Source: Theileria orientalis strain Shintoku
Taxonomy: Eukaryota > Apicomplexa > Aconoidasida > Piroplasmida > Theileriidae
Assembly (NCBI RefSeq): GCF_000740895.1
Contig: NC_025261.1
Span: 2,152,980 to 2,216,979, forward strand
Length of the DNA stretch: 64,000 bases
Direction of reading: 5' to 3'
In this document: one piece after another, positions 8,253 through 48,617 of the stretch
Numbering within the stretch: the stretch's first letter is position 1
Layout of the letters: every line of letters starts with the position of its first letter
Program-made: the position numbers and the translations under genes
The notes under the pieces: generated by a model
The model's input: the letters and a program-made list of their open reading frames with translations, nothing else
Databases searched by the model: none
Told to the model about the DNA's origin: nothing

Positions 8253-11200
8253 ATGAAGGGTGTTTCTAGTGAAAAGGATTATTATCCTGAAAAGGAACCG
8301 GAATATTGCTTCTGGGAAAGCCAATTGTATCTAAAGGTTAAAAGTTGTCGTTTTTTCAAAGATAACCTTTTCAAATACCTCGACCACGGATTTAACTTTT
8401 ATGCCTTTTTTACCTGGGCTAGGAGATGGATTAATCTGGTTGCAAAGCAGTATGTTGAACCATATAAGTTCTATCCTCTGCCCATTTCAGATCAAATATT
8501 ATATTGGCAGCCAATATTTGCAAGGCACGTGAGCGATGCTCTTGTTAGGCTGGACACATACGAGACGTCGAAATCCAAGTCAATAAACAAACCAAAAAAA
8601 CCGTACAAATCAATACTGATGCGTGCCCTGTTTTTAACATATTGGAAAAGAATTTTGTTTATCATATTGGGATTCGTCGTTCTCTTAACGTGTAACATAT
8701 TATTGGCTTTTATTTTCAGGGAAATTTTAGACAATTCAACCGGCCAAATACCAAGGTTGAAATACGTATTGTTATTATCCACTTCTTTGGCCTTTTTACA
8801 GTTTTTAATTGCATTATTACTGGATCATATGAACTTTTACATGTACAGACTAATCCACGTGATACAGTATTCATTCTCCATTACGATATTCCAGCACGGA
8901 ATGTGTCACCGGAGGAAGTTTGCAAATAACATAGAAGGCTCCAACTCCTTGAATGTGTGCAACGAGGTTCTCCATAGTTGCTCACCGGACTCTGAGTGCT
9001 CTAAAAACCCATTGTTCTGCCAGGCATTACGTTATCAAAACAAGGATATCAATTCTAGGATATTTTCTTTCGAGTTTATGGATTCATACTACATTTCTCT
9101 CTTCATAGAATCAACAATCCAGATCGTGCAATTTATTTGTACGTTTACATTTGGATTTTTTGTAGTTACCAAAATCCTCCCAATACATGTTTGGCCATTG
9201 TATGCCTTTTACACATCGGTATCACTTTTGATGATTGTGCTTGAAATTTTCAATACAGTGATATTAAAGTACATTTATGGCTTAAAGGATTATAGAATAA
9301 ATAAATCTAGGGAAATAATAGCAGGTTTGCACCTTATCAATAAGATGTTTATGGATGACATTGCACATAACATCATAACAAAGACAAGGAACAATGAACT
9401 TATATTGCTCTTGATACGATTCGTACTATCATTTATTAATAGATTACTTGTTGCGTTAACTATCTCGTTTTCATTAACATATCTGTTAGACGACTATATT
9501 AATAACGTTCTTAATACGGATGATATTTCTGGATTTAAATCAGGCCATGTTATGTCATCTTTATTGATAATTATTAAATCGGCTGATTCCATGTTATTTG
9601 TTCCGGATTCAATAAAATTTTTGACATATTCACTGATATCGTACTTCAGAGTGGAATACTATATGAATGAATGTTCCCCGAATTTTTATATCAGTGATAA
9701 CAAATACACGGGTTCAGTGAAAACATCCACAAACATAGTTCCGATAACAACTCAACTTCCTAAGGATGTTGTTGTTTATTATAAGGATGCCACATTCACA
9801 TGGGTCAACACACGCAATGACCTGCTCAATAAAAATTATGACACATATTTAAAAAATATAAACTTTGAGTTAAAACGTGGCGAGATGGTTATTGTTACAG
9901 GTTCTCAAGGTTCTGGCAAATCAAATTTTATCAAATCAATGCTTGGTGAGATGACCCTGGTTGGGGGTTCCATGGCCGTTGTACCATTACACACATCAAT
10001 GCCCATATTTTATGCATCACAAGATATATTCCTACAACAGGGTACCATTAGATCCAACATTGTATTTGGTCATCGTTTTGATGAATATTTGTACAACACC
10101 GTGCTTAAGGCTGTGGAACTTGAATTTGACATATCAACCTGGGATAAGGGTGACCTCAGAGTAGTGTCAGATAATGCACATTCACTCAGTGGAGGTCAAC
10201 GTGTAAGAATGGAGTTGGCTCGTGCAGTGTACGCTTATTTGATATTCCATCAAGTAAACACTGAGTACAACAACAGTCAATGTTCATTCTTGATGTGTCT
10301 GGATGCCTCGTTCCACGGTCTAGATCCATATGTGTCCAAAACTATATTCAATAACCTGTTTAACCTTAAAACTGGGCTATTGATAAAGAATGATTTAAGT
10401 GTTGTTTTAACTTCTATAAAAAGAGATCTTAAATCAATATCCATAAACGATGTATCTTACCCCAATATGCCTTTGTACAATATTACCGATAAAACTTTGA
10501 AAAAAATAAAGGATATGAAATATTCACAGATAAATGCTAGTCCAACGACCACAGTACTGAAAACTATTGAACCTGAAGAGATGATGAAAATGTGCGATTC
10601 AGGAGAGAATAGCCGATCAGGAAGAAAGAAATTTGTAATCGAAAAGTATGAGGATTCCCTGATAATAAACCCAGAGTCAAAGGTGACCGTAATAAAACTC
10701 AAGGAATCATTCAAGTCCTACATTATTTACCTGAAATCAATAGGGCCTCTCTTTGCATTGTTCGTCATATTCACATTCACTTATATAGCAATCGAAAATT
10801 TTACGTACGTCAAGGCAGGGGGAATGGGAGACCTTATTATGGAAATCGTAGTTCATGTAAAGTCTGAAATTGAGGCAGTATCATCGTATTCGACTATAAT
10901 CGCTATGTGCAATAGGACCTTAACGAAGATTAAAATCATGACTCTGTTCATAGTTATATTCTGTTTTCTGGCAAATTCGGTTCTAACGTTCTGTTGCCTA
11001 CGCGGTTGTAAAAGAATACACGAATACTGTATTAATTCACTAATAAATAATAACTCGACGGTCGTGAGGATTAAGCAATATAGTAGTGAAATTTTAACGT
11101 TCCTATCATCGGACGTCTTTATGATCGATGAAAACTTCGGGCCTTGCCTATCCTCGTTGCTGATATTGTTCATAGGCGTTGTTGTACAAGCCATGGTAAT

Positions 11201-12791
11201 TGTTTATTCACACCCGATTTGTATACCAGTTGTTTTCTTAAGTCTTTTTGTAATCATTAACTTTGTTTTTAAAAGATTTGTTCATGCATCAAAAAATCTT
11301 CAGATTGCATCCCTAGAATCTCTATCTAGAAATAACTTCGTCTGTCAAAATGCAGTTTCATCTTCGTCAACATATCGTAGCTTCAAGAAGGAATCCACCC
11401 TTTTGGACAACGTAATAGAGTACACTGACTATTGTATAAGGTCGTGGTTCTATTCTAAGTCGTTCCTTTCATGGGCATCCTTCGTCTCAAAATTCGTATT
11501 TTTGGGGATGATGTTGTTTACATTTTTAGCGCCAGTATTATACAAAAAGTACGTAGGCATGGAATCCTTTGTAGGCTTCCAAGGATTAAATGTTATGCAA
11601 AATACGAGAATAATTTTTACATTCACGAACTTTGTGGTTGCAATTGCAAAGCTCGAAATGCTAATGTGCTCCATAAAAAGATTTGAATGTTTTATACCAC
11701 CTGGGCAAAAATGTGTATTCCAAAAATATCGCAATGTACATAAAGAGGATCCAGTGGTGAACATAAAATTAGAGAAAATTCTCAGCATCAATGATGTTAA
11801 AGATGCGTTGATCTTAAGAAGAAAAAAGGAATTTAAGGAAGAAAATAAAAAGTTTTATTGTTTTAGAAGGCTGGGTTTCAGACCCCGAATAAATATAATA
11901 TCACCTAATTTACATTTAAACCAAGAGCATAGCGGTGTTGAGTTAAAAAATGTGTGTGTGTACACCACAACTGACCTTAACCCAGAAGGCATGATCTTGA
12001 AAAATATTACAGTGTCAGCACATAAAGCTGAGATTATAGGTATAGTGGGTAGAACGGGTGCTGGTAAAACAACTCTATTGTCAGTGTTACAGAACATATC
12101 CACTAACAGAACTGGCCAAGTACTATTGGATGGTAAAGATTTGAATGATATCCCCAAGGTTGTCCTTAGACAGATTATAGGCGTCTTGCCACAACTGCCA
12201 TTTGTGTTCAAGGGTTGGACTATTAGGAGGTTCCTTGATCCCAGAAAGCTTTTTAGTGATGATGAAATAAATGATGCGCTTGACCAGTCTGGTCTTTTGA
12301 ACTTTGTTAACGAGCTTCCGGGATCTAAGAAATTGGACAGTGTAATAATACCAGACAACTTAAGTAGTTATATGCCAAACGATAAGAATGATATGGAGTT
12401 AAACACCGAAAACCTTAAAGATTATTACGAACAGTGTGATATGTTACTGTCAAACACACAACTTCGAACATTATCATTTGCTAGACTAGTGCTGTACAGA
12501 AATCTATTTAGGATTATCCTGGTTGATGAACCTCCATCAGAAAATTGCTATGAAAATGAGTACAGTGAAAGCGATACAGGGACATACGATCTTGGAGTGC
12601 CAATATATGAGCTGCTTAAAAAATTCTTCCAGCACTGTACAACATTCGTGACAGCACACGATTCTAATGCCCTGCGTATGTGTAATTCAGTATGGATACT
12701 ACACCAAGGAATGTTCATGGGTAAATGCGGTGTAGACGAAATTTTAAAAGAAAACTCAATAGCCAATATAATACAGAAATTTGTCAAATAG
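8253..12791 (+). CDS. ABC transporter copy A, ABCC/MRP-like full transporter
   Basis: An intronless protein of 1512 residues with the order TMD1-NBD1-TMD2-NBD2. NBD1 has Walker A GSQGSGKS near residue 550, a Q-loop glutamine in YASQDIF, and the canonical signature LSGGQRV near 648, but its Walker B reads MCLDASF with Ala where the catalytic acid should be. The switch histidine is replaced (SVVLTSIK). NBD2 has Walker A GRTGAGKTT near 1266, Q-loop VLPQLPF, Walker B ILVDEPP and switch His in VTAHD, but the signature is degenerate (LLSNTQLRT). One composite site should therefore be catalytic and the other degenerate, as known for ABCC proteins. A Cys-rich segment containing HGMCHRRK and CNEVLHSCSPDSEC lies in TMD1. 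It is a membrane exporter of unknown substrate. Copies B (38929) and C (44049) are paralogues with tracts of identical DNA. Confidence 0.9.
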   Translation: MKGVSSEKDYYPEKEPEYCFWESQLYLKVKSCRFFKDNLFKYLDHGFNFYAFFTWARRWINLVAKQYVEPYKFYPLPISDQILYWQPIFARHVSDALVRLDTYETSKSKSINKPKKPYKSILMRALFLTYWKRILFIILGFVVLLTCNILLAFIFREILDNSTGQIPRLKYVLLLSTSLAFLQFLIALLLDHMNFYMYRLIHVIQYSFSITIFQHGMCHRRKFANNIEGSNSLNVCNEVLHSCSPDSECSKNPLFCQALRYQNKDINSRIFSFEFMDSYYISLFIESTIQIVQFICTFTFGFFVVTKILPIHVWPLYAFYTSVSLLMIVLEIFNTVILKYIYGLKDYRINKSREIIAGLHLINKMFMDDIAHNIITKTRNNELILLLIRFVLSFINRLLVALTISFSLTYLLDDYINNVLNTDDISGFKSGHVMSSLLIIIKSADSMLFVPDSIKFLTYSLISYFRVEYYMNECSPNFYISDNKYTGSVKTSTNIVPITTQLPKDVVVYYKDATFTWVNTRNDLLNKNYDTYLKNINFELKRGEMVIVTGSQGSGKSNFIKSMLGEMTLVGGSMAVVPLHTSMPIFYASQDIFLQQGTIRSNIVFGHRFDEYLYNTVLKAVELEFDISTWDKGDLRVVSDNAHSLSGGQRVRMELARAVYAYLIFHQVNTEYNNSQCSFLMCLDASFHGLDPYVSKTIFNNLFNLKTGLLIKNDLSVVLTSIKRDLKSISINDVSYPNMPLYNITDKTLKKIKDMKYSQINASPTTTVLKTIEPEEMMKMCDSGENSRSGRKKFVIEKYEDSLIINPESKVTVIKLKESFKSYIIYLKSIGPLFALFVIFTFTYIAIENFTYVKAGGMGDLIMEIVVHVKSEIEAVSSYSTIIAMCNRTLTKIKIMTLFIVIFCFLANSVLTFCCLRGCKRIHEYCINSLINNNSTVVRIKQYSSEILTFLSSDVFMIDENFGPCLSSLLILFIGVVVQAMVIVYSHPICIPVVFLSLFVIINFVFKRFVHASKNLQIASLESLSRNNFVCQNAVSSSSTYRSFKKESTLLDNVIEYTDYCIRSWFYSKSFLSWASFVSKFVFLGMMLFTFLAPVLYKKYVGMESFVGFQGLNVMQNTRIIFTFTNFVVAIAKLEMLMCSIKRFECFIPPGQKCVFQKYRNVHKEDPVVNIKLEKILSINDVKDALILRRKKEFKEENKKFYCFRRLGFRPRINIISPNLHLNQEHSGVELKNVCVYTTTDLNPEGMILKNITVSAHKAEIIGIVGRTGAGKTTLLSVLQNISTNRTGQVLLDGKDLNDIPKVVLRQIIGVLPQLPFVFKGWTIRRFLDPRKLFSDDEINDALDQSGLLNFVNELPGSKKLDSVIIPDNLSSYMPNDKNDMELNTENLKDYYEQCDMLLSNTQLRTLSFARLVLYRNLFRIILVDEPPSENCYENEYSESDTGTYDLGVPIYELLKKFFQHCTTFVTAHDSNALRMCNSVWILHQGMFMGKCGVDEILKENSIANIIQKFVK
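8942..9047 (+). repeat. 106-bp tract identical in ABC copies A and C
   Basis: Matches 44735-44840 exactly by eye. Copy B differs at several synonymous positions here (for example GACTCCGAGTGTTC versus GACTCTGAGTGCTC). It encodes the Cys-rich loop. Confidence 0.8.
9682..9955 (+). repeat. 274-bp tract identical in ABC copies A, B and C
   Basis: By eye, this tract has the same sequence as 40385-40658 and 45475-45748. It covers the TMD1-NBD1 junction and Walker A of NBD1. Synonymous sites are also identical, unlike flanking sequence. Confidence 0.85.
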
Positions 12792-13154
12792 ACAATGTAA
12801 ACTAGAGTTTTTAATATCTGTAATATGATATTTAAAACCTACACGATATATAACACACAATGGTTAATATGACTGAATACGATATGGTAAGATTAACGTT
12901 AATAATAGATTGATATATAAATAAAAGAAGACAAATAAATATTCAAAAAAACATAATAACTTAAATGATCAAAAATGTGTGACAATCTTTCTTACAAAAA
13001 ATGTATTTTGTTGTGATTTGTTAACCCAATCATTGTTGAGCAAATGGTAAATCGACCTAATATGACCCTTAAAATATAATGAAAGCCAATGATCCATCTG
13101 TATAGTTAAATGTGTCAATGTTATTTCAACTACATTTATTTAAAACTTTACTCT
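12792..13154. other. AT-rich intergenic region
   Basis: About 360 bp. The first ~40 bases after the ABC A stop (GACAATGTAAACTA...) resemble those after the ABC B stop, so the shared tract runs into the 3' UTR. Nothing else was recognised. Confidence 0.6.
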
Positions 13155-14495: not shown

Positions 14496-14622
14496 TGATA
14501 TTAAGGAGGGAGAGCTAGGATACCACAGGGAAGAACAGAACTTTTGGAAAAAGGCGGATTACAGGTAGAAGGTTAATTAGATTAAAGAAGATGTGAGTAG
14601 GGATAACGGAGATAAGCCAGGA

Positions 14623-16161: not shown

Positions 16162-16198
16162 TAAATAAGCAAGTAAACTAATGTAGTAAAAATTTATG

Positions 16199-17648: not shown

Positions 17649-18085
17649 GGAATACACATTTAAAGCCACAGCAAGTTGAAAAAACTAATTCAGACTCGAA
17701 TTCAGCAAAAGAAGGTTCAGTGTACTTGCAAGTACAAGTGTACGCGAAACAGGAAGTTGAAAAGGGAGCTACACAGGAGGTCAGATTTCGACCAACGAAA
17801 AAAAACAATATAATACAGCTAATTTACAAAATAATATACATAATATACATGAGAAAAGTGGAAGCGGTAGCGGATTCCGCAATATGACAGCCCTATAATA
17901 AGTGCAGGAAAAAAATTTTTTAAAAATAACGTTTTGAACTACAAATAGCAATAAAAAATGTATAATAAATTAATTGAGCGGATTCTTATAAAAATGAACG
18001 CCGATATACACGAATTTGCTATAAATACAATTTACACACCTAGATAGATAGAACATAAATGTTAACATAATTACATTAAAGTGAG
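17649..18085. other. Intergenic region
   Basis: About 440 bp between the start of the ENT-like gene and the 3' end of the FCP1-like gene, both on the minus strand. It must hold the ENT-like promoter. No other feature was seen. Confidence 0.5.
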
Positions 18086-31309: not shown

Positions 31310-33400
31310 ATGAAACTATGTATTATATTTAGACCATTATTGTTTTATTTATTGTTGTGTTACGGCAAAAAATTTGCCCTTTCTACTGACCAAGCTGCAA
31401 CAACTACAACTCCACAACAGCAACCCTTACTCTATTCAATAGAGGTTGATATCGCACAAAGAGAGTCTACTAGTGAAATCATATACAATGTGGAGTTCGA
31501 TGGAGCTGAAACTTTCGTTTGTCGAAAGGGCTACGTGATTAGAGAGGTATGGAAACGCGATAAACTCCTATGGAAATATGAAAAAGATGCGTATCCTGAT
31601 AAAGTATACATTATAACTGGTTCTGATGGAAAAAGGACAGCTAATGTTCGCTACCCATATGACGAACTTGTAGTTGAAGTTGACCTATCAGTCAAGCAGT
31701 CTAATGACTGGGTTATTTATCAGAGATATGATCAAGAGGATATTGACTTATTCATTTGTAAAACTGGTTACTTAATTTCAAAGGTTAAGAAAGGACAGGC
31801 TGTAGTATGGCAGTGGCAACAAGGTTTGGACTACCCTAATAGAGTTATCATCCACAAGGACGAACACGGAAAAAAAATGGCAACTGTTAAGTTCCCAGGA
31901 GATGAACATATTTTGCTAATCTTAGATGTTGCAGTTAGGCAATCCACGAACGAAGTTGACTATGTAAAGGATCAACACGGCATTGACGCCTTTATTCCCA
32001 AGCCAGGTTACAGAATACACAGGGTGGTAAAGAATGGTAAATTCGTCTGGGAGTGTCAAGACGGGATTTATCCTGACAGGATCAATATTGTCTATGACGA
32101 AAATGGAAGACCTATTGCCAGGTTTAAGTTCCCCGATGCCGTTCCAGAAGCAGCGCCTCCGGTTGCCGCTCCTCCTCCAGAGGTGGCCCCGCCACCACCT
32201 CCGCCACCCGAAATAAAAGAAAGATCTGGTATGCAATTAGATTTAATGGCTAAAGAACCCACTCAATATTACAATTACGAAGATCAAGGCAATGTCGGAA
32301 CTTATACGCCCTATGATACAGTTGCCTTCAATTCTATCATGAAGAAAAACAGTACTATATGGTCTACTCGTGACAAAAAGAAATACGCAACACTTGTAGT
32401 TCGAGATGGTGTTAAAAAGTGTAAAAGTTTCAATAACGTGTCACTCCAGCATCTCGATGGTAGTTATACTCATTTAACATACGACAAAGGCAATTGGGTT
32501 GAAATTTCAAAGGAATTGATCCTTAACATTAAGTTTCAAAATACTGTACGCTACGATTACTCAGAAGAACACGATTTGGGTATATTTACACCCAAACACG
32601 ACTGTGTATTCAAGAATGTGAGGTTGCAAAGGAGCTGTAGTTGTGGTCGCCGTACAGGAGACCGCGATTTCTGGCACGGCGGAAAGGAAAAAATTACACG
32701 GCGAGTAGTAACTAATTATCACTTTAACATGGACCGTGAAAAGTATTTAAGTATTTTCGTTGAAGGTGGCGAAGTTTTCCATTACCGTTCACCCACTGGC
32801 CAGTACGGATGGGATCAAATCTCAAACGAAATGGTTTTAGACTTAAAGAAGAAAGATAATACTTATCGATTCTACTACGCAGCATATGATCAACTCCCTA
32901 CCTACGTTGGCAACTATAACTTTGTTTTCACGGCAATAGTAAACGGCAACGAGCACATATGGCAAGGGGAAAAAGGCCAATACGCAAATCTCGTATATAC
33001 CGACTGTTCAGATCAAAAAGAGGATCCCGATAACCTGGCCATTGTTTTAACAGACGAAACCAAGATTTTGCTCCAAAAATCCGGTGGTCGATGGGTGAAG
33101 AGCGACGAATTCCCAGGATTCGACCTCGACATCCTGGAACAGTACTCAACCACAACGATTAGTTACGCACAAAACACGGATGCAACTGCTCACAGTTTCA
33201 CTACCAAAAACATATTCCTGATTAAAAGGGTTTTAGATGAATGTAAAGAAATATGGAAGGCCGAGAATAAGTCTCAATACGCGCGAAAGGTTATTTTATT
33301 CGGCGATCAGCTAATCATAAAGCCGCATTTGGGTCAGAGAATCGAATATGAAAAGAAAGATCGTAAATGGGTTAAGAAGGTCCTCGAACAACAAAATTAA
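31310..33400 (+). CDS. Secreted FAINT-repeat protein with Pro-rich hinge
   Basis: A single exon of 696 residues with signal peptide MKLCIIFRPLLFYLLLCYG. Residues ~45-270 form three tandem units of about 70 residues. Each has a VD-start, an F-x-C/P-K-x-GY core (FVCRKGYVIREVWK, FICKTGYLISKVKK, FIPKPGYRIHRVVK), a VW/LW motif, and a closing YPDKVYI, YPNRVII or YPDRINI block. A proline hinge (APPPEVAPPPPPPPE) follows near residue 290. The second half has four more diverged units with TIWSTRD, FWHGGKEK, HIWQGEKGQYA and EIWKAENKSQYA. This is a seven-unit FAINT protein, presumably exported by the parasite. The two halves use clearly different subfamilies of the repeat, so it may be a fusion of two FAINT proteins. 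Confidence 0.8.
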   Translation: MKLCIIFRPLLFYLLLCYGKKFALSTDQAATTTTPQQQPLLYSIEVDIAQRESTSEIIYNVEFDGAETFVCRKGYVIREVWKRDKLLWKYEKDAYPDKVYIITGSDGKRTANVRYPYDELVVEVDLSVKQSNDWVIYQRYDQEDIDLFICKTGYLISKVKKGQAVVWQWQQGLDYPNRVIIHKDEHGKKMATVKFPGDEHILLILDVAVRQSTNEVDYVKDQHGIDAFIPKPGYRIHRVVKNGKFVWECQDGIYPDRINIVYDENGRPIARFKFPDAVPEAAPPVAAPPPEVAPPPPPPPEIKERSGMQLDLMAKEPTQYYNYEDQGNVGTYTPYDTVAFNSIMKKNSTIWSTRDKKKYATLVVRDGVKKCKSFNNVSLQHLDGSYTHLTYDKGNWVEISKELILNIKFQNTVRYDYSEEHDLGIFTPKHDCVFKNVRLQRSCSCGRRTGDRDFWHGGKEKITRRVVTNYHFNMDREKYLSIFVEGGEVFHYRSPTGQYGWDQISNEMVLDLKKKDNTYRFYYAAYDQLPTYVGNYNFVFTAIVNGNEHIWQGEKGQYANLVYTDCSDQKEDPDNLAIVLTDETKILLQKSGGRWVKSDEFPGFDLDILEQYSTTTISYAQNTDATAHSFTTKNIFLIKRVLDECKEIWKAENKSQYARKVILFGDQLIIKPHLGQRIEYEKKDRKWVKKVLEQQN

Positions 33401-36414: not shown

Positions 36415-36612
36415 ACAGAGTAACCAATGTATAATATTGTAAGGGATGTATAAGTGCGTAAGTAGGTGGTAGGAAGATAAGTACACGTAAAAAGTATCAC
36501 ATTACAAAATTGTGACTATCACAACAGGTTAACATTTGTTAACAAACATTGTAATGGAACGTTGATTTAGACTTCTAGAATGACAAATTATCATCCTTTG
36601 TAATGATACCGC

Positions 36613-38928: not shown

Positions 38929-41900
38929 ATGAGTAAATCTGATAAATCCCTAGATATGGATCGCCAACCTAGCGATAGTTTTAATGACAGTGAAAAGGAA
39001 CCGGAATACTGTTTCTGGGAAAGCCAATTGTATCTAAAGGTTAAAAGTTGTCGTTTTTTCAAAGATAACCTTTTCAAATACCTCGACCACGGATTTAACT
39101 TTTATGCCTTTTTTACCTGGGCTAGGAGATGGATTAATCTGGTTGCAAAGCAGTATGTTGAACCATATAAGTTCTATCCTCTGCCCATTTCAGATCAAAT
39201 ATTATATTGGCAGCCAATATTTGCAAGGCACGTGAGCGATGCTCTTGTTAGGCTGGACACATACGAGACGTCGAAATCCAAGTCAATAAACAAACCAAAA
39301 AAACCGTACAAATCAATACTGATGCGTGCCCTGTTTTTGACATATTGGAAACGGCTTCTTATAATTTTATTTTGTTTCATGTTCCTGTACAGTGTCAACA
39401 TGCTCCTCATTTTTATAGTGATGAAAATACTAGTATTATTGAGTGAAGAGTCGCACAGAGCAGGGTACATATTTTTCCTAGCGTTTGTTTTAGCCATTTT
39501 ACAGTTCCTAATCGCAATATTTCTGGATCACACGAACTTTTACATGTACAGACTAATCCACGTGATACAGTATTCATTCTCCATTACGATATTCCAGCAC
39601 GGAATGTGTCACCGGAGGAAGTTTGCAAATAACATAGAAGGCGTCAACTCCTTGAATGTGTGCAACGAGGTTCTCCATAGTTGCTCACCGGACTCCGAGT
39701 GTTCTAAAAATCCTCTGTTCTGCCAGGCTTTGCGTTATCAAAACAAGGATATCAATTCTAGGATCTTTTCTTTCGAGTTTATGGATTCATACTACATTTC
39801 CCTCTTTTGTGAGTCAATAGTGTATATTGTCCAATTTTTGTTCAATTACCTTGTGGGATTTTGTGTTATTTATGAGTGTATATTAATCCCTGTCTGGCCA
39901 TTGTATGTTTGCTACGTAATCGCAACATTTGCAATGGTTGTCATTGAATTTTTTAATACCTTGATCTTGAAATACATTTATGGCTTGAAGGATTATAGAA
40001 TAAATAAATCGAGGGAAATAATATCAGGATTGGATTTAATAGATAAAATGTGCATGGACGACATTGCGCACAACATAATAACAAAGACAAGGAACGATGA
40101 ACTAATATTGCTTTTCATTAGATTCGTACTATCATTCGTTAATAGGCTATTCATAAGTATTTGTCCATCATACGCTATACTATACGTATTGGACAATTTT
40201 GTTGAAGAGTCCTTTAAAGAGAACGATATACACAAATTTAAAACAGCCCGTATGATGTCATCAATGATAGCATTGTTAAAAGTTTCGGATTCTATGTTAT
40301 TTGTTCCCGATGCAATGAAATTTTTGACATATTCACTGATATCGTACTTCAGAGTGGAATACTATATGAATGAATGTTCCCCGAATTTTTATATCAGTGA
40401 TAACAAATACACGGGTTCAGTGAAAACATCCACAAACATAGTTCCGATAACAACTCAACTTCCTAAGGATGTTGTTGTTTATTATAAGGATGCCACATTC
40501 ACATGGGTCAACACACGCAATGACCTGCTCAATAAAAATTATGACACATATTTAAAAAATATAAACTTTGAGTTAAAACGTGGCGAGATGGTTATTGTTA
40601 CAGGTTCTCAAGGTTCTGGCAAATCAAATTTTATCAAATCAATGCTTGGTGAGATGACTCTGGTCGGTGGATCTATGGCAATTGTACCACTACACACATC
40701 AATGCCCATATTTTATGCTTCACAAGATATTTGGTTACAGCACGGCACCATCAGGTCAAATATCACGTTCGGATATAAGTTTGACGAGCATCTGTACAAC
40801 ACCGTGCTTAAGGCTGTGGAACTTGAATTTGACATATCAACCTGGGATAAGGGTGACCTCAGAGTAGTGTCAGATAATGCCCATTCACTCAGTGGAGGTC
40901 AACGTGTAAGAATGGAGTTGGCTCGTGCAGTGTATGCTTATTTGGTGTTTCATCAAGTAAACACTGAGTACAACAACAGTCAATGTTCGTTCTTGATGTG
41001 TTTGGATGCCTCGTTCCATGGTTTGGACCCATATGTGTCCAAAACTATATTCAATAACCTGTTTAATGTAAAAACTGGGCTATTGGTTAAGGATGATTTA
41101 AGTGTCGTTTTGACATCCATAAAACGATATCTGAGGCTATTTTCCTTGACTGAACAGTCTTATCCTAATATGTCCTTGTACCATATCACAGATAAAACTT
41201 TGAAAAAGGTTAGTGGTGCACATATTTCAGAAATAACCAGTCCTTCACGATCTTACGGGTTGGAAACTATAGCCACTGGTGAAATTATGAAACTATGTGG
41301 ATCTGGGGATAATCTAGGTGCAGGTAGAGCCAAAGTTGTGATTGGCAAGTATGAGGATTCCCTCATCATAAACCCAGAGTCGAAGTTGACCAAAAGGAGC
41401 ATTTTAGACTCTTTAAGGCCTTATTTGATTTATTTGAAGTCGATAGGATTCCCGTTTTTGTTATTTGTGATAACTACTGTGTTTTATGAGGCAGTGGAAA
41501 CCTTTAAGTACACACTTTCGGGAGAACTGGGAGATAAGATAATGGATATTGTTGTCGAAACAATTGATCCGAAGGATTTCGTACCGGCCCTTAAAAAAAT
41601 TAGAAAATTGTGTGATGATACTCTGTTGAAAATTAAAAAGTTAACAGGGATCATCGTAGCCTTTAATTTTACTTCAAACTTTATTCTAACGTTCTGTTGC
41701 CTACGCGGTTGTAAAAGAATACACGAATACTGTATTAATTCACTAATAAATAATAACTCAACGGTCGTGAGGATTAAGCAATATAGTAGTGAAATTTTAA
41801 CATTCCTATCATCCGACGTCTTTATGATCGATGAAAACTTCGGGCCTTGTATATCTTCTTTGTTTATTTTGTTTATAGAAGTGTCAATCAAAGCAATAAT

Positions 41901-43497
41901 TCTAGCATACTATTTTCCCATTTGCATCCCTGTTATAATTATATGTGTATCCGTAATTGCAATGTTTGTTTTCAAAAAATTCGTATTGGCATCAAAAAAT
42001 CTTCAGATTGCATCCCTAGAATCTCTATCTAGAAATAACTTCGTCTGTCAAAATGCAGTTTCATCTTCGTCAACATATCGTAGCTTCAAGAAGGAATCCA
42101 CCCTTTTGGACAACGTAATAGAGTACACTGACTATTGTATAAGGTCGTGGTTCTATTCTAAGTCGTTCCTTTCATGGGCCTCCTTCGTCTCAAAATTCAT
42201 ATTTTTTATAATGACGTTATCGGCATTCGTTATTCCACTAATTTACAAAGAATTTGTTAAGATCAAATCATTTATCGGGTTTTACGGCTTAAACATTATG
42301 CAAAATATAAGGATCATGTTCACATTTACTAACTTTGTAGTCACTATTGCAAAGCTCGAAATGTTAATGTGTTCCATCAAGAGGTTTGAATGTTTCATTC
42401 CTCCTGGTCAAAAGTGTAAATTTCAAAAATATCGCAATGTCAACAAAGAATATTTGGTTATGAATCTTGAATCCTACAAAGGACGTGATATTACTGAGCG
42501 TGAAGTCAAGAAATCATTAATATCCAGGCGCAAAAGGGAATTTAAAGATGAAAACAAAAGGTTTTATTGTTTTAGAAGGCTGGGTTTCAGACCCCGAATA
42601 AATATAATATCAGCTAATTTACATCTAAACCAAGAGCATAGCGGTGTTGAGTTAAAAAATGTGTGTGTGTACACAACTCCTGAACACACTCCAGAAAGTA
42701 TGATATTGAAGAATATCACAGTGACAGCACATAAAGCTGAGATTATAGGTATAGTGGGTAGAACGGGTGCTGGTAAAACCACTCTCTTGTCAGTGTTACA
42801 GAACATATCCACTAACAGAACTGGCCAAGTACTATTGGATGGTATAGATTTGAATGATATCCCCAAGGTTGTCCTTCGACAGATTATAGGTGTGTTGCCA
42901 CAACTGCCATTTGTGTTCAAGGGTTGGACTATTAGGAGGTTCCTTGATCCGAGAAAGCTGTTTAGTGACGACGAGATCAACCAGGCTTTGAGTAAATGTG
43001 GTTTACTCAATTTTGTTAACGAGCTTCCTGGATCTAAGAAGCTCGATAGTGTAATAATACCAGACAATCTGAGCCTGTACATGCCAACGAAGAAGAACTT
43101 GATGAAATTAAACGCCGAAAATCTCAAGGATTATTATGAAGAATGTGATATGCTATTGTCTTACACACAACTTCGAACATTATCATTTGCTAGACTAGTG
43201 CTGTACAGAAATCTATTTAGGATTATCCTGGTCGATGAACCTCCTGAAAACCTGTACGAAGATGAATTTGAAGAAAATGACGCCGAAATAAAGGAAGGAA
43301 ACGTACCTATATATCAGTTGCTTAAGATGTATTTCCCACATTGTACAACCTTCGTAACAGCACACAACTCAAATTCCCTGCGTATGTGTAATTCAGTATG
43401 GATACTACACCAAGGAATGTTCATGGGTAAATGCGGAATAGACGAAATTTTAAAAGAAAACTCAATAGCCAATATAATACAGAAATTTGTCAAGTAG
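38929..43497 (+). CDS. ABC transporter copy B, ABCC/MRP-like full transporter
   Basis: An intronless 1522-residue paralogue of copy A with the same TMD1-NBD1-TMD2-NBD2 order. Walker A sits near residue 559 in NBD1 and 1277 in NBD2. The NBD1 signature LSGGQRV is intact, its Walker B is again MCLDASF, and the NBD2 signature is degenerate (LLSYTQLRT) beside an intact ILVDEPP. The first 20 residues differ from copy A (MSKSDKSLDM...). After that the DNA is identical to A over 39013-39338, then diverges in the first membrane helices (RLLIILFCFMFLYSVNMLL). Bases 40385-40934 are identical to copy C. TMD2 contains tracts matching A. It sits head-to-tail with copy C, 551 bp apart. It should be a membrane exporter; substrate unknown. 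Confidence 0.9.
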   Translation: MSKSDKSLDMDRQPSDSFNDSEKEPEYCFWESQLYLKVKSCRFFKDNLFKYLDHGFNFYAFFTWARRWINLVAKQYVEPYKFYPLPISDQILYWQPIFARHVSDALVRLDTYETSKSKSINKPKKPYKSILMRALFLTYWKRLLIILFCFMFLYSVNMLLIFIVMKILVLLSEESHRAGYIFFLAFVLAILQFLIAIFLDHTNFYMYRLIHVIQYSFSITIFQHGMCHRRKFANNIEGVNSLNVCNEVLHSCSPDSECSKNPLFCQALRYQNKDINSRIFSFEFMDSYYISLFCESIVYIVQFLFNYLVGFCVIYECILIPVWPLYVCYVIATFAMVVIEFFNTLILKYIYGLKDYRINKSREIISGLDLIDKMCMDDIAHNIITKTRNDELILLFIRFVLSFVNRLFISICPSYAILYVLDNFVEESFKENDIHKFKTARMMSSMIALLKVSDSMLFVPDAMKFLTYSLISYFRVEYYMNECSPNFYISDNKYTGSVKTSTNIVPITTQLPKDVVVYYKDATFTWVNTRNDLLNKNYDTYLKNINFELKRGEMVIVTGSQGSGKSNFIKSMLGEMTLVGGSMAIVPLHTSMPIFYASQDIWLQHGTIRSNITFGYKFDEHLYNTVLKAVELEFDISTWDKGDLRVVSDNAHSLSGGQRVRMELARAVYAYLVFHQVNTEYNNSQCSFLMCLDASFHGLDPYVSKTIFNNLFNVKTGLLVKDDLSVVLTSIKRYLRLFSLTEQSYPNMSLYHITDKTLKKVSGAHISEITSPSRSYGLETIATGEIMKLCGSGDNLGAGRAKVVIGKYEDSLIINPESKLTKRSILDSLRPYLIYLKSIGFPFLLFVITTVFYEAVETFKYTLSGELGDKIMDIVVETIDPKDFVPALKKIRKLCDDTLLKIKKLTGIIVAFNFTSNFILTFCCLRGCKRIHEYCINSLINNNSTVVRIKQYSSEILTFLSSDVFMIDENFGPCISSLFILFIEVSIKAIILAYYFPICIPVIIICVSVIAMFVFKKFVLASKNLQIASLESLSRNNFVCQNAVSSSSTYRSFKKESTLLDNVIEYTDYCIRSWFYSKSFLSWASFVSKFIFFIMTLSAFVIPLIYKEFVKIKSFIGFYGLNIMQNIRIMFTFTNFVVTIAKLEMLMCSIKRFECFIPPGQKCKFQKYRNVNKEYLVMNLESYKGRDITEREVKKSLISRRKREFKDENKRFYCFRRLGFRPRINIISANLHLNQEHSGVELKNVCVYTTPEHTPESMILKNITVTAHKAEIIGIVGRTGAGKTTLLSVLQNISTNRTGQVLLDGIDLNDIPKVVLRQIIGVLPQLPFVFKGWTIRRFLDPRKLFSDDEINQALSKCGLLNFVNELPGSKKLDSVIIPDNLSLYMPTKKNLMKLNAENLKDYYEECDMLLSYTQLRTLSFARLVLYRNLFRIILVDEPPENLYEDEFEENDAEIKEGNVPIYQLLKMYFPHCTTFVTAHNSNSLRMCNSVWILHQGMFMGKCGIDEILKENSIANIIQKFVK
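39013..39338 (+). repeat. 326-bp tract identical in ABC copies A and B
   Basis: Matches 8310-8635 exactly by eye. It encodes the N-terminal cytoplasmic region and stops at the edge of the first diverged membrane helix. Confidence 0.8.
40385..40934 (+). repeat. 550-bp tract identical in ABC copies B and C
   Basis: Matches 45475-46024 exactly by eye, including positions where copy A differs (from the base after 9955 onwards). It spans most of NBD1. Confidence 0.8.
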
Positions 43498-44048
43498 ACA
43501 ATGTAAACTATAGTTTTAACCCCTTTTTAATAAGTGTAATATAGTATTCTTAATTCATAATATAAATAAATAACTTATGGTCCTCACATGATTGTACTGT
43601 GTTAATGATTGTAAATATAAAATGTTAGATGGTGCAACAGCTCATCAAACCAGAACAAATATAAAGATAAAATAATTAAAAATGAAAGTTTACTTCCAAG
43701 ATAAAACAATGGCATCATACATGGTTAAATATACTTGTAAATTTGTATATAAAAAAATTGTATGTGTAAACATATTTATAATAAATAATAAAATTTTTTA
43801 GACTCCCCATAGGTAAAAATGTATAAAAAAGGGTGTAACAGAAGACACATATTTAAAATATTTAGTACCTTTAATTTGTTTATAATGTATATGTATAATT
43901 TAAAATATATATAAATTTTAAAATTTGTTTAATAAGAACATATGTACAGCATATACACAGAAAATGTACTATGTCGACAATAATTGAAAACAATTATGCA
44001 AATTAACAAATAAACTCATATGATTCTTATTTACACTAATTTTTCAAT
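43498..44048. other. Intergenic spacer between ABC copies B and C
   Basis: 551 bp, AT-rich. The first ~40 bases match the 3' flank of copy A. It must contain the promoter of copy C; no motif was recognised. Confidence 0.5.
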
Positions 44049-47000
44049 ATGAATCAACCTTCCATGAGTATAAAGTATTGTAACTACGAACCGGAAAACT
44101 GTTTCTGGGAAAGTGAAGAGTATAGCAAATCGTATTTTGAAACTAAAAAGAACAAGTATATTAAATATCATGACAGTTCTGGAATTTTAAAGTATCTGTT
44201 CTTTTACTGGGTCAACAAATGGGCCCTAGTACTCTCAAAAAAGTACCTAGAGCCGTACAAGCTACACCCGCTGCCTGTGTCAGACCAAATATTAGTCTGG
44301 GAACCAGTATTTTCGAAGCATATCAGCGACGGAATAATAAGGCTGGAATCATACGAACAAGATAAGGCGAGATCGAAAGACAAACTCAAAAGGCCGTACA
44401 AGTCGATACTGTTTCACGCCCTGCTGATGACATTCTGGAAAAAATTTCTTGTTTTGACGTTTGGCTTGATATGCACAAACGTCATGACGATGAGTATCGC
44501 AATCCTGGTCAAGAGCCTACTGGGACTCCTGAACGACAAATCTATCAGCTTCACAAGAACGTTTTTCTTGTTACTAGTCATAATACTGTTTCAAGTATTA
44601 GATGGGCTGATAATGGAAAACATATCGTTCTACATGTATAGAATCATCGCAACGATACACGGCTTGTTCATGATAAGCGTGTTTAGGCACGGGATGTGTC
44701 ACCGGAGGAAGTTTGCAAATAACATAGAAGGCATCAACTCCTTGAATGTGTGCAACGAGGTTCTCCATAGTTGCTCACCGGACTCTGAGTGCTCTAAAAA
44801 CCCATTGTTCTGCCAGGCATTACGTTATCAAAACAAGGATGTTAACCCACAAATGTTCAATTTCGTCTTTAATGACTCGTACTACATCTCGATGTCCCTG
44901 GAGCCGATAAAATTTATAATAGAGTTTGTGGCAAACTTCATATACGGGATATTCCTCATATCAGTGCAAATGAAGGTCAATATATGGGTGTTATACGTGG
45001 TAGGAGTGCTCTTCGTGGTTCTCATAGTAACAGTCGAGATTGTTAACACAATTCTGCTAAAATTTATGCTACACCTCAGAGATTGTAGGATATCTAAGTC
45101 AAACCATATCATAATGGGACTGTCACTGGTAAAAAAGGTTATGTACGACGATATCGCAACAAACATTATTACAAAAAGTAGAAACAAGGAACTCTCAATT
45201 TTATTCATAAGGATTTCAATGCTGTTTTTCAACCTGGTGCTGTATTCATTTTGCATTAACACGTCGTTCTACATAATTAAGCACCACTTTGTAGAATTGG
45301 TTAGAAAAGCATCTGTAGTCACTGATATAGATACTACAGCATTCATGACCACCTTCTACATATTTCTAAGGATTGTCACCTCCATGTTTTTGATACCGAG
45401 CTCAGTAAAGGCAATCGGAGTGGCGTACATATCATTCAAAAGGGCGGATGAATGCTTCAGAGACTCTTCCCCTAATTTTTATATCAGTGATAACAAATAC
45501 ACGGGTTCAGTGAAAACATCCACAAACATAGTTCCGATAACAACTCAACTTCCTAAGGATGTTGTTGTTTATTATAAGGATGCCACATTCACATGGGTCA
45601 ACACACGCAATGACCTGCTCAATAAAAATTATGACACATATTTAAAAAATATAAACTTTGAGTTAAAACGTGGCGAGATGGTTATTGTTACAGGTTCTCA
45701 AGGTTCTGGCAAATCAAATTTTATCAAATCAATGCTTGGTGAGATGACTCTGGTCGGTGGATCTATGGCAATTGTACCACTACACACATCAATGCCCATA
45801 TTTTATGCTTCACAAGATATTTGGTTACAGCACGGCACCATCAGGTCAAATATCACGTTCGGATATAAGTTTGACGAGCATCTGTACAACACCGTGCTTA
45901 AGGCTGTGGAACTTGAATTTGACATATCAACCTGGGATAAGGGTGACCTCAGAGTAGTGTCAGATAATGCCCATTCACTCAGTGGAGGTCAACGTGTAAG
46001 AATGGAGTTGGCTCGTGCAGTGTACGCTTATATGGTATTCCATCAGGTAAACAAGGAGTATAACAACAGCCAATGTTCGTTCTTGATGTGTTTGGATGCC
46101 TCGTTCCATGGTTTGGACCCATATGTGTCCAAAACTATATTCAATAACCTGTTTAATGTAAAAACTGGGCTATTGGTTAAGAATGATTTAAGTGTTGTTT
46201 TAACATCGTCGAAACAGGGTCTTCAAACATGTCTGAATCCATCCGATGCCAATCAATTCCATAACTTGCCAATTTTTAACGTTAAAAACAAGGAATTGAA
46301 GTTCTGTAGTAACTTGCACGACTTTATGAAGAACAATAAAGTAGAAAGTGAAGATTACAAATACATATCGACTAGCGACGGTGTCCCATATAACATGAGT
46401 TATATAAGCAATGATAAATTGGCACTATGCTCCTCTGATGATAACACGAGAGAAGGTAGAACGGAAGTAACAAAAGCAATCTACAGCAAGCTGTTCAACC
46501 TAAGATCAACCAATCAACTGTCAGACGTAACTTTGAGTACGTATTTCGTGTTCATGAAACCAGCACTGGTTACATTCATGATATTCATAGTCCTAAACGT
46601 CGTGGCGACAATTTTGGATAGCGTAAAACTTGTCCTCTCAACGAACCTGTCAGAATACATAACCAAAAGGATAAACCAGTATAAGCAAGGAGAGCTGGTG
46701 AATTTGTACGAAATAAAGTCAAGAGCAAACATATCGTATCAAATAGTATACATCCTTATAATAATAATAATCGTAACGTCAACAATATCAATAGCCATGT
46801 TCTCAATATCATGCATAAAGTCGTCTAGGAAGCTGCACGAGTACGTACTCGATTCAATATTTAAAAACAGCGCAGCAATAATAAAGGTGAAAAGACAAAT
46901 AAGTCAAATAATCACGTACCTATCATGCGATACCACAATGATCGACGACGGCATAGGAATGTTTCTGTCATTGGTTTTGATACACCTCATACAAATGCTG

Positions 47001-48617
47001 ATACACCTAGTAACACTGATCTGGCTAGTGCCGGTTTCCCTGCCAGCTGTCTTTATAACGCTGCTCATAATATACATTTTTGTTCTAAAGAGATACGTAG
47101 ACTCCTCAAAGAGCATACACCTAGTGTATTTAGAATCATCCTCACGAATCAACGCAGGATGCGAAAATGCGATTTCAGGCTCATCGATATACAGAAGCTT
47201 TAAAATGGAGTCAGAACTTATGACAAAAATCATAGAGCACTCGGAGTACAAATCTAGAACAAGATTCATGTACAGATCAGTGTTAACATGGTCAGCAGTG
47301 TCGTTTAATTGGATATTCTCAGTGACAACACTGTTGATACTTATCATACCAATACTGCTGGACAGATGCACAGATTACGATATGAATGTGGGCTATTTCG
47401 GATTGTCTCTGTCGCTGTGCATGAGCATTACGAAATCGTACTCGAAATTTTCATCAAATTTTTCATTGCTAGAAATGTTTATGTGCTCCATCAGAAGGTT
47501 CGAATGTTTCATACCCCCAGGTGATAAGTTAAAATTTAAAAAGTGCCATAACACCCATGAAGAACATGTAGCTAACCCGGTTAGTATCAACCTCACTAAC
47601 GAAGACAAGACCCGCTTATTAAGAAGGAGATCTATTGAATTTAAAGATGAAAACAAAAAATTCTATGCTTTGAGAAGACTGTTCTACCATCCTAAACTAC
47701 ACATCATGGATGTCAACGATTACCTAAACCCCGATCGCACAGGTGTCCAGCTAAAAGACGTGTGTGTGTACACAACACCTCAACACAACCCAGAGAGTAT
47801 GATTCTAAAGCACATAACAGTGCCAGCTGGTAAATCTGAAATCATTGGTATAGTGGGTAGAACGGGTGCTGGTAAAACGACGCTGTTGTCAGTGTTACAG
47901 AACATATCCACTAATAGAACTGGACAAGTACTGTTGGATGGTAAAGATTTGAATGATATCCCCAAGGTTGTCCTTCGACAGATTATAGGTGTGTTGCCAC
48001 AACTGCCATTTGTGTTCAAGGGTTGGACTATTAGGAGGTTCCTTGATCCGAGAAAGCTGTTTAGTGACGACGAGATCAACCAGGCTTTGAGTAAATGTGG
48101 TTTACTCAATTTTGTTAACGAGCTTCCTGGATCTAAGAAGCTGGATAGTGTAATATTACAAGATGAAGTTGCTTCAAATAATGCTAAACAAAATTTATCA
48201 AATCTCCAAGTAAATAAATCATATGAAAAGACAGTTAATACAGAATATAATAAGCACGGTTATGTTAGTGATATGTTACTATCCAATACTCAACTAAGAA
48301 CCCTGTCATTGGCAAGATTGGTATTGTACAAGCACTTCTTTAGGCTTATTGTAGTTGATGAGCCTCCTGAGGAAGATCCCGAAACAGCCAGTATCAGAAA
48401 AAATGACCTTTCAGTTCCGATTTATGATATTTTACAGAAACATTTTAGTCATTGTACCACGTTTGTCACAGCACATGATGTTAACGTATTAAAATCTTGT
48501 ACCTCTGTATGGGTGATACATGAGGGGTGTGTAGTAAAAACTTGTAAAGCCAGTGATGTATCAGCAAATGAGTCAATAGCAGCGATCATTGAAGAAAGTG
48601 TAAAATATTCAAAATAG
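44049..48617 (+). CDS. ABC transporter copy C, ABCC/MRP-like full transporter
   Basis: An intronless 1522-residue paralogue, the most diverged of the three outside shared tracts. Walker A near residue 549 (GSQGSGKS) and 1270 (GRTGAGKTT); NBD1 signature LSGGQRV intact; NBD1 Walker B MCLDASF lacks the acid; NBD2 signature is LLSNTQLRT with VVDEPP following. The N-terminus (MNQPSMSIKY) and both membrane domains are different in sequence from A and B but keep the same layout, including the Cys-rich HGMCHRRK block, which is shared. Private segments (for example 44160-44690, 44845-45440 and 46480-47500) use C/G/A-ending codons, while the shared NBD tracts use T/A-ending codons. This contrast marks imported tracts. 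Substrate unknown. Confidence 0.9.
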   Translation: MNQPSMSIKYCNYEPENCFWESEEYSKSYFETKKNKYIKYHDSSGILKYLFFYWVNKWALVLSKKYLEPYKLHPLPVSDQILVWEPVFSKHISDGIIRLESYEQDKARSKDKLKRPYKSILFHALLMTFWKKFLVLTFGLICTNVMTMSIAILVKSLLGLLNDKSISFTRTFFLLLVIILFQVLDGLIMENISFYMYRIIATIHGLFMISVFRHGMCHRRKFANNIEGINSLNVCNEVLHSCSPDSECSKNPLFCQALRYQNKDVNPQMFNFVFNDSYYISMSLEPIKFIIEFVANFIYGIFLISVQMKVNIWVLYVVGVLFVVLIVTVEIVNTILLKFMLHLRDCRISKSNHIIMGLSLVKKVMYDDIATNIITKSRNKELSILFIRISMLFFNLVLYSFCINTSFYIIKHHFVELVRKASVVTDIDTTAFMTTFYIFLRIVTSMFLIPSSVKAIGVAYISFKRADECFRDSSPNFYISDNKYTGSVKTSTNIVPITTQLPKDVVVYYKDATFTWVNTRNDLLNKNYDTYLKNINFELKRGEMVIVTGSQGSGKSNFIKSMLGEMTLVGGSMAIVPLHTSMPIFYASQDIWLQHGTIRSNITFGYKFDEHLYNTVLKAVELEFDISTWDKGDLRVVSDNAHSLSGGQRVRMELARAVYAYMVFHQVNKEYNNSQCSFLMCLDASFHGLDPYVSKTIFNNLFNVKTGLLVKNDLSVVLTSSKQGLQTCLNPSDANQFHNLPIFNVKNKELKFCSNLHDFMKNNKVESEDYKYISTSDGVPYNMSYISNDKLALCSSDDNTREGRTEVTKAIYSKLFNLRSTNQLSDVTLSTYFVFMKPALVTFMIFIVLNVVATILDSVKLVLSTNLSEYITKRINQYKQGELVNLYEIKSRANISYQIVYILIIIIIVTSTISIAMFSISCIKSSRKLHEYVLDSIFKNSAAIIKVKRQISQIITYLSCDTTMIDDGIGMFLSLVLIHLIQMLIHLVTLIWLVPVSLPAVFITLLIIYIFVLKRYVDSSKSIHLVYLESSSRINAGCENAISGSSIYRSFKMESELMTKIIEHSEYKSRTRFMYRSVLTWSAVSFNWIFSVTTLLILIIPILLDRCTDYDMNVGYFGLSLSLCMSITKSYSKFSSNFSLLEMFMCSIRRFECFIPPGDKLKFKKCHNTHEEHVANPVSINLTNEDKTRLLRRRSIEFKDENKKFYALRRLFYHPKLHIMDVNDYLNPDRTGVQLKDVCVYTTPQHNPESMILKHITVPAGKSEIIGIVGRTGAGKTTLLSVLQNISTNRTGQVLLDGKDLNDIPKVVLRQIIGVLPQLPFVFKGWTIRRFLDPRKLFSDDEINQALSKCGLLNFVNELPGSKKLDSVILQDEVASNNAKQNLSNLQVNKSYEKTVNTEYNKHGYVSDMLLSNTQLRTLSLARLVLYKHFFRLIVVDEPPEEDPETASIRKNDLSVPIYDILQKHFSHCTTFVTAHDVNVLKSCTSVWVIHEGCVVKTCKASDVSANESIAAIIEESVKYSK

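What the first reader, a model, noticed from the sequence alone, without database searches (positions are those of the whole stretch)
8253..48617. Three ABC transporters are mosaics of identical tracts with changing partners
Seen directly: copies A (8253), B (38929) and C (44049) share blocks of identical DNA, but the matching pair changes along the gene. A=B over 8310-8635/39013-39338. A=C over 8942-9047/44735-44840, where B differs at synonymous sites. A=B=C over 274 bp at 9682/40385/45475. B=C over 550 bp at 40385/45475. A=B again in TMD2 (about 11287-11475/41990-42178). Between these blocks the membrane helices are strongly diverged. Identical synonymous sites next to diverged sequence point to repeated segmental gene conversion that keeps NBDs and loops uniform while membrane segments diversify, possibly changing substrate range.
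Basis: partly seen in the sequence, partly recalled or inferred. Interest (0 to 1): 0.82.

Follow-up and report, generated by a model that had tools for sequence, protein, structure and literature searches.

The report
Parasite transporter genes swapping engine parts
Neighbouring transporter genes in the cattle parasite Theileria orientalis appear to keep copying their ATP-burning "engine" segment from one another while their membrane channels stay distinct, so one gene carries two different histories.

Summary
A (8253), B (38929) and C (44049) are single-ORF, MRP/ABCC-like ABC exporters at the right end of Theileria orientalis Shintoku chromosome 2. Synonymous difference among them swings between 0 and saturation, and the matching partner changes.

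The pattern is general. Among 30 intact family members, 12 of 12 neighbouring pairs carry significant silent-site tracts. Median NBD1 synonymous difference is 0.17 in neighbours, 0.60-0.64 otherwise; TMD1 does not differ. Three separate loci share the same three blocks: the TM2-TM3 loop, the end of TM6 through NBD1, and the front of NBD2.

Compared with the Chitose and Buffeli genotypes, membrane domains group with orthologs (8 of 8 groups, support 100), but NBD1 groups with the neighbour in the same genome (9 of 11 pairs). This is concerted evolution by ectopic gene conversion, strongest between neighbours and mainly in segments that stay similar enough to recombine.

"Membrane segments diversify" is not: membrane domains are conserved between orthologs, and NBD1 turns over. 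The closest precedent is tandem ABC pumps of Candida krusei (recalled). New variant of a known kind.

The parts
8253..12791 (+). Copy A: 1512-aa full-length ABC exporter (class 1 membrane domains; groups with T. annulata P0009)
38929..43497 (+). Copy B: 1522-aa ABC exporter (class 1); TMD orthologs P0003 (Fish Creek) and P0008 (Goon Nure)
44049..48617 (+). Copy C: 1522-aa ABC exporter (class 2), tandem neighbour of B; TMD orthologs P0013 and P0015
8310..8635 (+). 326-bp tract identical to B 39013-39338; here A sits in the B clade, so the donor was probably B
39013..39338 (+). B partner (probable donor) of the 326-bp tract in A
8942..9047 (+). 106-bp A=C tract (with 44735-44840) in the loop between TM2 and TM3; B differs at synonymous sites between 8993 and 9029
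44735..44840 (+). C partner of the A=C loop tract
9681..10418 (+). A: post-TM6 linker plus NBD1 (aa 477-722), the most homogenised module; first 275 bp identical in A, B and C
40384..41121 (+). B: linker plus NBD1; 551 bp (40384-40934) and 111 bp (40981-41091) identical to C
45474..46211 (+). C: linker plus NBD1; partner of the B tracts
11286..11476 (+). 191-bp A=B tract in the second membrane domain (with 41989-42179)
41989..42179 (+). B partner of the 191-bp tract
42846..43043 (+). 198-bp B=C tract in the front half of NBD2 (with 47945-48142)
47945..48142 (+). C partner of the NBD2 tract

Best explanation
A, B and C are old members of the Theileria subtelomeric ABC (MRP-like) transporter family. 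Ectopic gene conversion, mostly non-crossover, repeatedly overwrites short stretches (blocks of 60 to about 1100 bp; 60 is the scan's floor), most strongly between neighbouring genes and sometimes between chromosomes. It acts mainly where paralogs stay about 70% or more alike in DNA: the TM2-TM3 loop, linker plus NBD1, and the front of NBD2. Most membrane-spanning segments have diverged too far to recombine and keep their ancestral identity. Shown here: the mosaic, its excess over permutation, the shared block pattern, the ortholog/paralog conflict for NBD1 in three genotypes, and the dependence on proximity and baseline identity. Inferred: that homologous-recombination repair or meiotic conversion is the agent, and that homology rather than selection sets the edges.
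For: Silent-codon run test: 60 of 435 pairs pass an approximate Bonferroni bound: 12 of 12 neighbouring, 14 of 122 same-chromosome, 34 of 301 different-chromosome pairs; the longest run lies in NBD1 in 35 of 60, NBD2 14, N-terminus 6, membrane/loop parts 5. NBD1 pS median is 0.17 in neighbours against 0.64 and 0.60 (p 5e-9); TMD1 0.81 against 0.82 and 0.83 (p 0.13). Trees: TMD 8 of 8 ortholog groups at support 100; NBD1 9 of 11 within-genome sister pairs. NBD1 is nearer to an own-genome paralog than to the TMD-defined ortholog in 17 of 19 Shintoku, 12 of 16 Fish Creek and 12 of 13 Goon Nure genes that had such an ortholog. T. annulata P0009: membrane domains nearest to A among those compared (61%), yet NBD1 84-91% identical to 11 of the 15 other T. 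annulata sequences and 73% to A. Same blocks at three separate loci. Tract occupancy rises from 2-8% of neighbouring pairs below 70% baseline identity to 27-66% above. In the 8 genes of the four tandem sets, TMD1 and TMD2 best-match the same FC and the same GN protein. T. parva conversion tracts have medians of 108-426 bp (PMC3575351, passages); classical end joining is reported lost in Theileria (PMC6635534, passages).
Against: No recombination event was seen directly. Other genotypes were compared as proteins only. The homolog collection is clustered at 90% identity, so the FC (23) and GN (19) sets are incomplete, and some models are truncated (P0008). Permuting silent sites ignores local codon constraint; tracts of about 22-30 codons are weak, the bound is approximate (L024/L035 passes it without exceeding its permutation maximum), and pairs are not independent. 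NBD2 does not show the family-wide reversal that NBD1 shows. Tandem pairs also differ mildly from the rest in TMD2 (p 0.02), NBD2 (p 0.04) and C-terminus (p 0.004). Identity alone does not explain all: NBD1 exceeds NBD2 at equal baseline, and aa 481-500 is shared in 42% of neighbouring pairs at a baseline of 0.53. In 6 of the 18 genes TMD1 and TMD2 best-match different GN proteins (2 of them also different FC proteins), which may reflect missing orthologs or some crossovers.
Confidence: 0.9

Rival explanations
1. Purifying selection or codon constraint alone keeps NBD DNA alike; no conversion.
For: Family-wide median pS is lower in NBD1 (windows aa 541-720: 0.48-0.67) than elsewhere (about 0.8), also between pairs that are not neighbours.
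Against: Some neighbouring pairs have NBD1 pS of 0.01-0.10 while other pairs sit near 0.6 over the same codons. A/B windows with pN of 0.06-0.07 have pS of 0.55-0.83. NBD1 differs more between orthologs than between neighbours in the tandem sets.
Confidence: 0.03
2. Young duplicates whose membrane domains diverged rapidly under positive selection.
For: Near-identical NBD1 beside 30-38% identical membrane domains in B and C.
Against: Membrane synonymous sites are near saturation. B-type and C-type membrane domains each have an ortholog in both other genotypes, and A's type groups with T. annulata (support 99).
Confidence: 0.02
3. Assembly artefact: repeats collapsed or mis-joined.
For: Identical tracts up to 551 bp are hard for short reads. 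The Illumina-based Robertson B allele (P0002) shows an internal duplication and differences almost only in NBD regions. The Shintoku reads were not examined.
Against: A is distinct from B and C inside NBD1 (pS 0.57-0.66 in windows aa 563-622). Independent long-read assemblies of two genotypes show the same effect with different residues (methods in PMC9323827).
Confidence: 0.03
4. Unequal crossing-over or shuffling of whole halves rather than non-crossover conversion.
For: Copy number differs between genotypes (38, 55 and 43 reported, PMC9323827). In 6 of 18 genes TMD1 and TMD2 best-match different GN proteins; for this I raised the odds from 0.05 to 0.08.
Against: In the 8 genes of the four tandem sets the membrane domains on both sides of NBD1 keep the same best match, and several short tracts occur per gene.
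Confidence: 0.08
5. Conversion occurs, but selection for matched loop/NBD1 engines, not lost homology, sets the block edges.
For: The first two blocks match the TM2-TM3 loop and everything after TM6 in a moderate-confidence model. NBD1 is converted more than NBD2 at equal baseline identity.
Against: Occupancy follows baseline DNA identity (Spearman 0.57); the NBD1 homology block is also longer than that of NBD2.
Confidence: 0.2

Closest known systems
Candida krusei ABC1/ABC11 tandem PDR pumps (Lamping et al. 2017, Genetics 205:1619; seen only as a title in reference lists; content recalled; paper not held)
   Same: Tandem ABC drug pumps in concerted evolution by ectopic gene conversion, with membrane patches kept distinct (recalled).
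   Different: There more than 90% of the pair is identical (recalled) and the pumps are ABCG type. Here mainly a loop and NBD modules are shared, membrane domains of class 1/class 2 pairs are about 28-48% identical, the family has at least 31 full-length copies, and the proteins are MRP/ABCC-like.
Zebrafish NLR-B30.2 family (PMC4852459, passages)
   Same: Gene conversion acts differently on the domains of one protein, so domain histories conflict.
   Different: An immune receptor family with reported positive selection in the recognition domain; no such selection is shown here.
Theileria subtelomeric ABC transporter family (PMC2826314 and PMC4583173, passages; PMC9323827, sections)
   Same: This is that family; several T. 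annulata members are named '(Subtelomeric) ABC-transporter protein family member'.
   Different: The parts read do not describe NBD conversion or domain-specific concerted evolution. PMC4583173 does report a high non-synonymous SNP density (7.3%) in predicted intracellular regions of one T. parva member, which may be a related sign (inference).
[quoted passage not shown] parva (Bishop et al. 1997, title in reference lists only)
   Same: Concerted evolution in a Theileria multicopy family.
   Different: The Tpr family, not transporters (recalled).

Membership tests
Type IV (ABCC/MRP-like) ABC exporter | Two TMD-NBD halves in one chain | tested here: met
   One PF00664 and two PF00005 stretches in each of A, B and C; first-half model of A has long helices then an NBD
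Type IV (ABCC/MRP-like) ABC exporter | Nearest solved relatives are ABCC proteins | tested here: met
   C by phmmer: MRP4/ABCC4, then CFTR and MRP2; fold search of the A half led by MRP4 and MRP2, but TMq is only about 0.44 and mean pLDDT 66.9
Type IV (ABCC/MRP-like) ABC exporter | Asymmetric ATP sites: NBD1 without catalytic Glu, NBD2 with degenerate signature (criterion recalled) | tested here: met
   NBD1 Walker B reads LDA, LDS or LDF in 30 of 30; NBD2 has no LSGGQ in 30 of 30 and keeps DE in 30 of 30; NBD1 LSGGQ in 29 of 30
Type IV (ABCC/MRP-like) ABC exporter | Passes the curated NCBIfam MRP cut-off | tested here: not met
   TIGR00957 scores 151, 159 and 182 bits against a cut-off of 1470: MRP-like, not an MRP equivalog
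Ectopic gene conversion / concerted evolution | Silent sites identical in blocks between paralogs | tested here: met
Ectopic gene conversion / concerted evolution | Within-genome paralogs closer than orthologs in the converted part only | tested here: met
   Met for NBD1; NBD2 reverses in B/C but not in L016/L024 or L017/L018 nor family-wide; the T. annulata set as a whole is uninformative
Ectopic gene conversion / concerted evolution | Flanking markers retained (non-crossover) | tested here: met
   8 of 8 genes in the four tandem sets; but 6 of 18 genes examined have different best GN partners for TMD1 and TMD2. A and B flanks match only over 20 bp just after the stop codon
Ectopic gene conversion / concerted evolution | Tract polymorphism between isolates | tested here: inconclusive
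   Robertson B allele differs from Shintoku B at 10 residues in NBD regions and 1 near its truncated start, plus an inserted NBD2 duplication; short-read assembly

The most novel reading that the evidence does not exclude
Theileria runs a shared-engine system: selection favours exchange of a loop plus NBD1 cassette among neighbouring transporters, so an ATPase improvement in one pump spreads to its neighbours and, more slowly, across the family, while each keeps its own membrane domain.
Probability: 0.18. Interest if true: 0.75.

Novelty: new variant of a known kind. Interest (0 to 1): 0.55.

Why it matters
One gene carries two phylogenies, so orthology calls, counts of genotype-specific ABC genes (PMC9323827 reports 43 and 36 unique to the benign isolates) and selection scans on whole genes could mislead; membrane domains look safer for orthology. 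The class 1/class 2 tandem pairs (membrane domains about 28-48% identical, NBD1 90-99.6%, replicated in three genotypes) also let the identity limit of ectopic conversion be measured in a natural eukaryote.

Tried and rejected
GC-biased conversion: GC3 is not consistently raised in NBD1 (windows aa 541-720: 0.34-0.60; elsewhere 0.34-0.55). Conversion reaching far into flanks: A and B match only over 20 bp after the stop codon; A and C upstream share 157 bp at 67.5% and 27 bp more. T. annulata set-wide window test: paralogs were closer in every window, so it does not discriminate, and the set may mix strains. P0009 was compared instead; four of its 15 T. annulata comparisons fall below the 84-91% range (P0029 75.5%, P0030 77.6%, P0071 80.0%, P0087 63.5%). 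Robertson B allele as proof of moving tracts: inconclusive. PDB search of A at 1e-50 found nothing. The profile search is not used, because alignment A1 already held four distant MRP-like rows (P0090, P0093, P0094, P0097). PF00005 search listed 19 scored of 84 candidates, the protein search 31 scored of 38, so copy counts are lower bounds. Literature: searches (8 papers; 0; 27, 20 listed; 5; 2; 18, 15 listed; 0; 14; 50, 15 listed), 67 (10). I opened 15 papers, one by sections and the others by passages; of the 8 only 2. PMC7296165, which holds all three terms, could not be opened. Nothing I opened reports NBD conversion in Theileria ABC genes; most subscription papers are not held, so it may be in print elsewhere.
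Full report
What it is. The window is G000 contig C2:2152980-2216979, the right end of that contig, finishing in TTTAGGG repeats. The four contigs seen (2,746,313; 2,216,979; 2,000,793; 2,019,511) equal the T. orientalis Shintoku chromosomes in Table 2 of PMC9323827. A, B and C are single-ORF ABC exporters of 1512, 1522 and 1522 aa. A protein search finds 31 full-length copies (38 candidates, 31 scored), one with an in-frame TAG; the other 30 were aligned as codons.

Observation. Synonymous difference runs from 0 to 0.9-1.06 along the pairs. Partner switching exceeds permutation: 83 runs against a minimum of 126 in 5000 shuffles, and each of the three patterns has a run longer than any of 2000 shuffles gave.

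Family-wide test. Using only degenerate codons with the same amino acid in both genes, 60 of 435 pairs pass an approximate Bonferroni bound: 12 of 12 neighbouring pairs (under 15 kb; some share a gene, so they are not independent), 14 of 122 on the same chromosome, 34 of 301 on different chromosomes; 77 pairs exceed all of their own 1000 shuffles. Among the 60, the longest run lies in NBD1 in 35, NBD2 in 14, the N-terminus in 6 and membrane or loop parts in 5; the longest is 282 codons (L019/L034). Tracts of about 22-30 codons are weak, because codon constraint may help them. Median NBD1 pS is 0.17 in neighbours against 0.64 (same chromosome) and 0.60 (different); TMD1 is 0.81 against 0.82 and 0.83 (p 0.13). 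TMD2, NBD2 and the C-terminus differ mildly (p 0.02, 0.04, 0.004).

Anatomy. Blocks of at least 95% identity (60-base windows) at the class 1/class 2 pairs B/C, L016/L024 and L017/L018 fall in the same three places (A numbering): about aa 212-272 (214-253 in B/C), 467/473 to 712-728 (with short breaks in B/C and L017/L018), and 1254-1263 onward, with 47-51% identity elsewhere. Other neighbouring pairs mainly share NBD1; L028/L036 also share the N-terminus and C-terminus, and L019/L034 extends to aa 830. A/B, not neighbours, share 11 blocks. A model of A 1-740 (mean pLDDT 66.9, pTM 0.56, so moderate; 220-237 and 479-500 below 50) puts TM2 ending at 216, TM3 starting at 268, TM6 ending at 472 and NBD1 at about 506-731. 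Thus the first block is the TM2-TM3 loop, cytoplasmic by the usual exporter topology (recalled), and the second is everything after TM6. The TMD2 half was not modelled. NBD1 lacks the catalytic Glu in 30 of 30 and NBD2 lacks LSGGQ in 30 of 30, with DE kept in NBD2, so one canonical ATP site is expected, as in MRP proteins (recalled).

Three genotypes. Fish Creek (Chitose, MACJ) and Goon Nure (Buffeli, MACK) have chromosome-level long-read assemblies (PMC9323827); the accession prefixes, and MACL for Robertson, are in PMC5921998. For B/C, NBD1 identity between neighbours is 98.4% (Shintoku), 98.8% (FC) and 98.0% (GN), while orthologs are 92.7-94.7%; for membrane domains neighbours are 31-45% and orthologs 78-91%. 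L016/L024 and L017/L018 in all three genotypes, and L019/L034 in two, repeat this for NBD1. NBD2 reverses in B/C but not in L016/L024 or L017/L018. The TMD tree gives 8 of 8 ortholog groups at support 100. The NBD1 tree gives 9 of 11 within-genome sister pairs (support 79-100); the exceptions are Shintoku B/C, which groups with A (support 90 for the trio), and Shintoku L017/L018, which is not a pair. Over all genes with a TMD-defined ortholog, NBD1 is closer to an own-genome paralog in 17 of 19 Shintoku, 12 of 16 FC and 12 of 13 GN genes; 11 of 30, 7 of 23 and 6 of 19 had no clear ortholog and were not counted. The collection is clustered at 90%, so genes are missing. In 50-residue windows the balance shifts towards paralogs across aa 501-700 in all three genotypes, GN least clearly (at 501-550 9 against 8, at 551-600 2 against 5 with 12 ties), while membrane windows favour orthologs; NBD2 does not shift consistently.

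Depth and direction. Outside the tracts A groups with T. annulata P0009 (support 99), so the A and B lineages predate that species split. Yet over 108 residues of the N-terminal tract A and B are identical and group with the FC and GN orthologs of B (91.7% identity, support 94), against 59.6% to P0009. The simplest reading is that B overwrote A after the genotypes split. No clear ortholog of A was found among the 23 FC and 19 GN proteins (best 64% and 59%). P0009 has an NBD1 84-91% identical to 11 of 15 other T. annulata sequences but 73% to A, although its membrane domains are nearest to A among those compared.

Mechanism. Tract occupancy in neighbouring pairs depends on the identity seen between paralogs on different chromosomes: 2-8% below 0.70, 27% at 0.70-0.75, 52% at 0.75-0.80, 66% above 0.80 (Spearman 0.57, p 1e-7). 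Exceptions: aa 481-500 (baseline 0.53, occupancy 0.42), which lies inside the NBD1 tract, and NBD1 above NBD2 at the same identity; its homology block is longer, but selection is not excluded. T. parva shows 52 and 56 non-crossover conversions in two clones with median tracts of 108 and 207 bp, and 277 and 426 bp at crossovers (PMC3575351, passages). Classical end joining is reported lost in Theileria (PMC6635534, passages). In the 8 genes of the four tandem sets the membrane domains on both sides of NBD1 best-match the same protein, which fits non-crossover conversion; in 6 of the 18 genes examined the best GN partners of TMD1 and TMD2 differ, so some crossovers or missing orthologs are possible.

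Membrane domains are not clearly the fast part: between genotypes they can be more conserved than NBD1 (L016 TMD1 91-92%, NBD1 85-88%), though elsewhere less (C TMD2 78-84%, NBD1 93-95%). No test of positive selection was made here. T. annulata ABC transporters are listed among families with below-average dN/dS (PMC2826314, passage). Substrate change is untested.

Verdict. Real, statistically strong, and more general than reported: domain-restricted concerted evolution of an apicomplexan ABC family. Precedent exists in yeast PDR pumps (recalled) and zebrafish NLRs (PMC4852459, passages), so it is a new variant of a known kind.

Noticed in passing
L030 (G000:C1:1471155-1475669): A 31st full-length family member has one in-frame TAG and may be a pseudogene; left out and not read through.
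   Followed up: no
window 52877-52995 and 56982-57100: A stretch of about 119 bp is repeated with one mismatch 4.1 kb away, near two large minus-strand ORFs (53262-56015, 57559-59913) without Pfam matches.
   Followed up: no
window 63790-64000: Telomere of TTTAGGG units with irregular variants, preceded by subtelomeric sequence with short repeats.
   Followed up: no
window 6324-7358, 31310-33400, 48986-50452, 51976-52569: ORFs with FAINT/DUF529 matches lie on both sides of the ABC genes; only 31310-33400 is a strong match.
   Followed up: partly
P0057 (T. orientalis Shintoku, 2399 aa): A deposited protein named cell division control protein / DNA helicase carries ABC transporter domains, probably two neighbouring genes fused in annotation.
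   Followed up: no
P0002 (Robertson, MACL_00002020): B allele of a second Ikeda isolate: membrane domains 99-100% identical to B, 10 of 11 substitutions in NBD regions, plus an internal NBD2 duplication; conversion polymorphism or short-read chimera.
   Followed up: partly
window 8901-9053 (A aa 217-267): The loop between TM2 and TM3 carries a Cys-rich stretch, with C236, C249 and C256 nearly invariant in alignment A1.
   Followed up: partly
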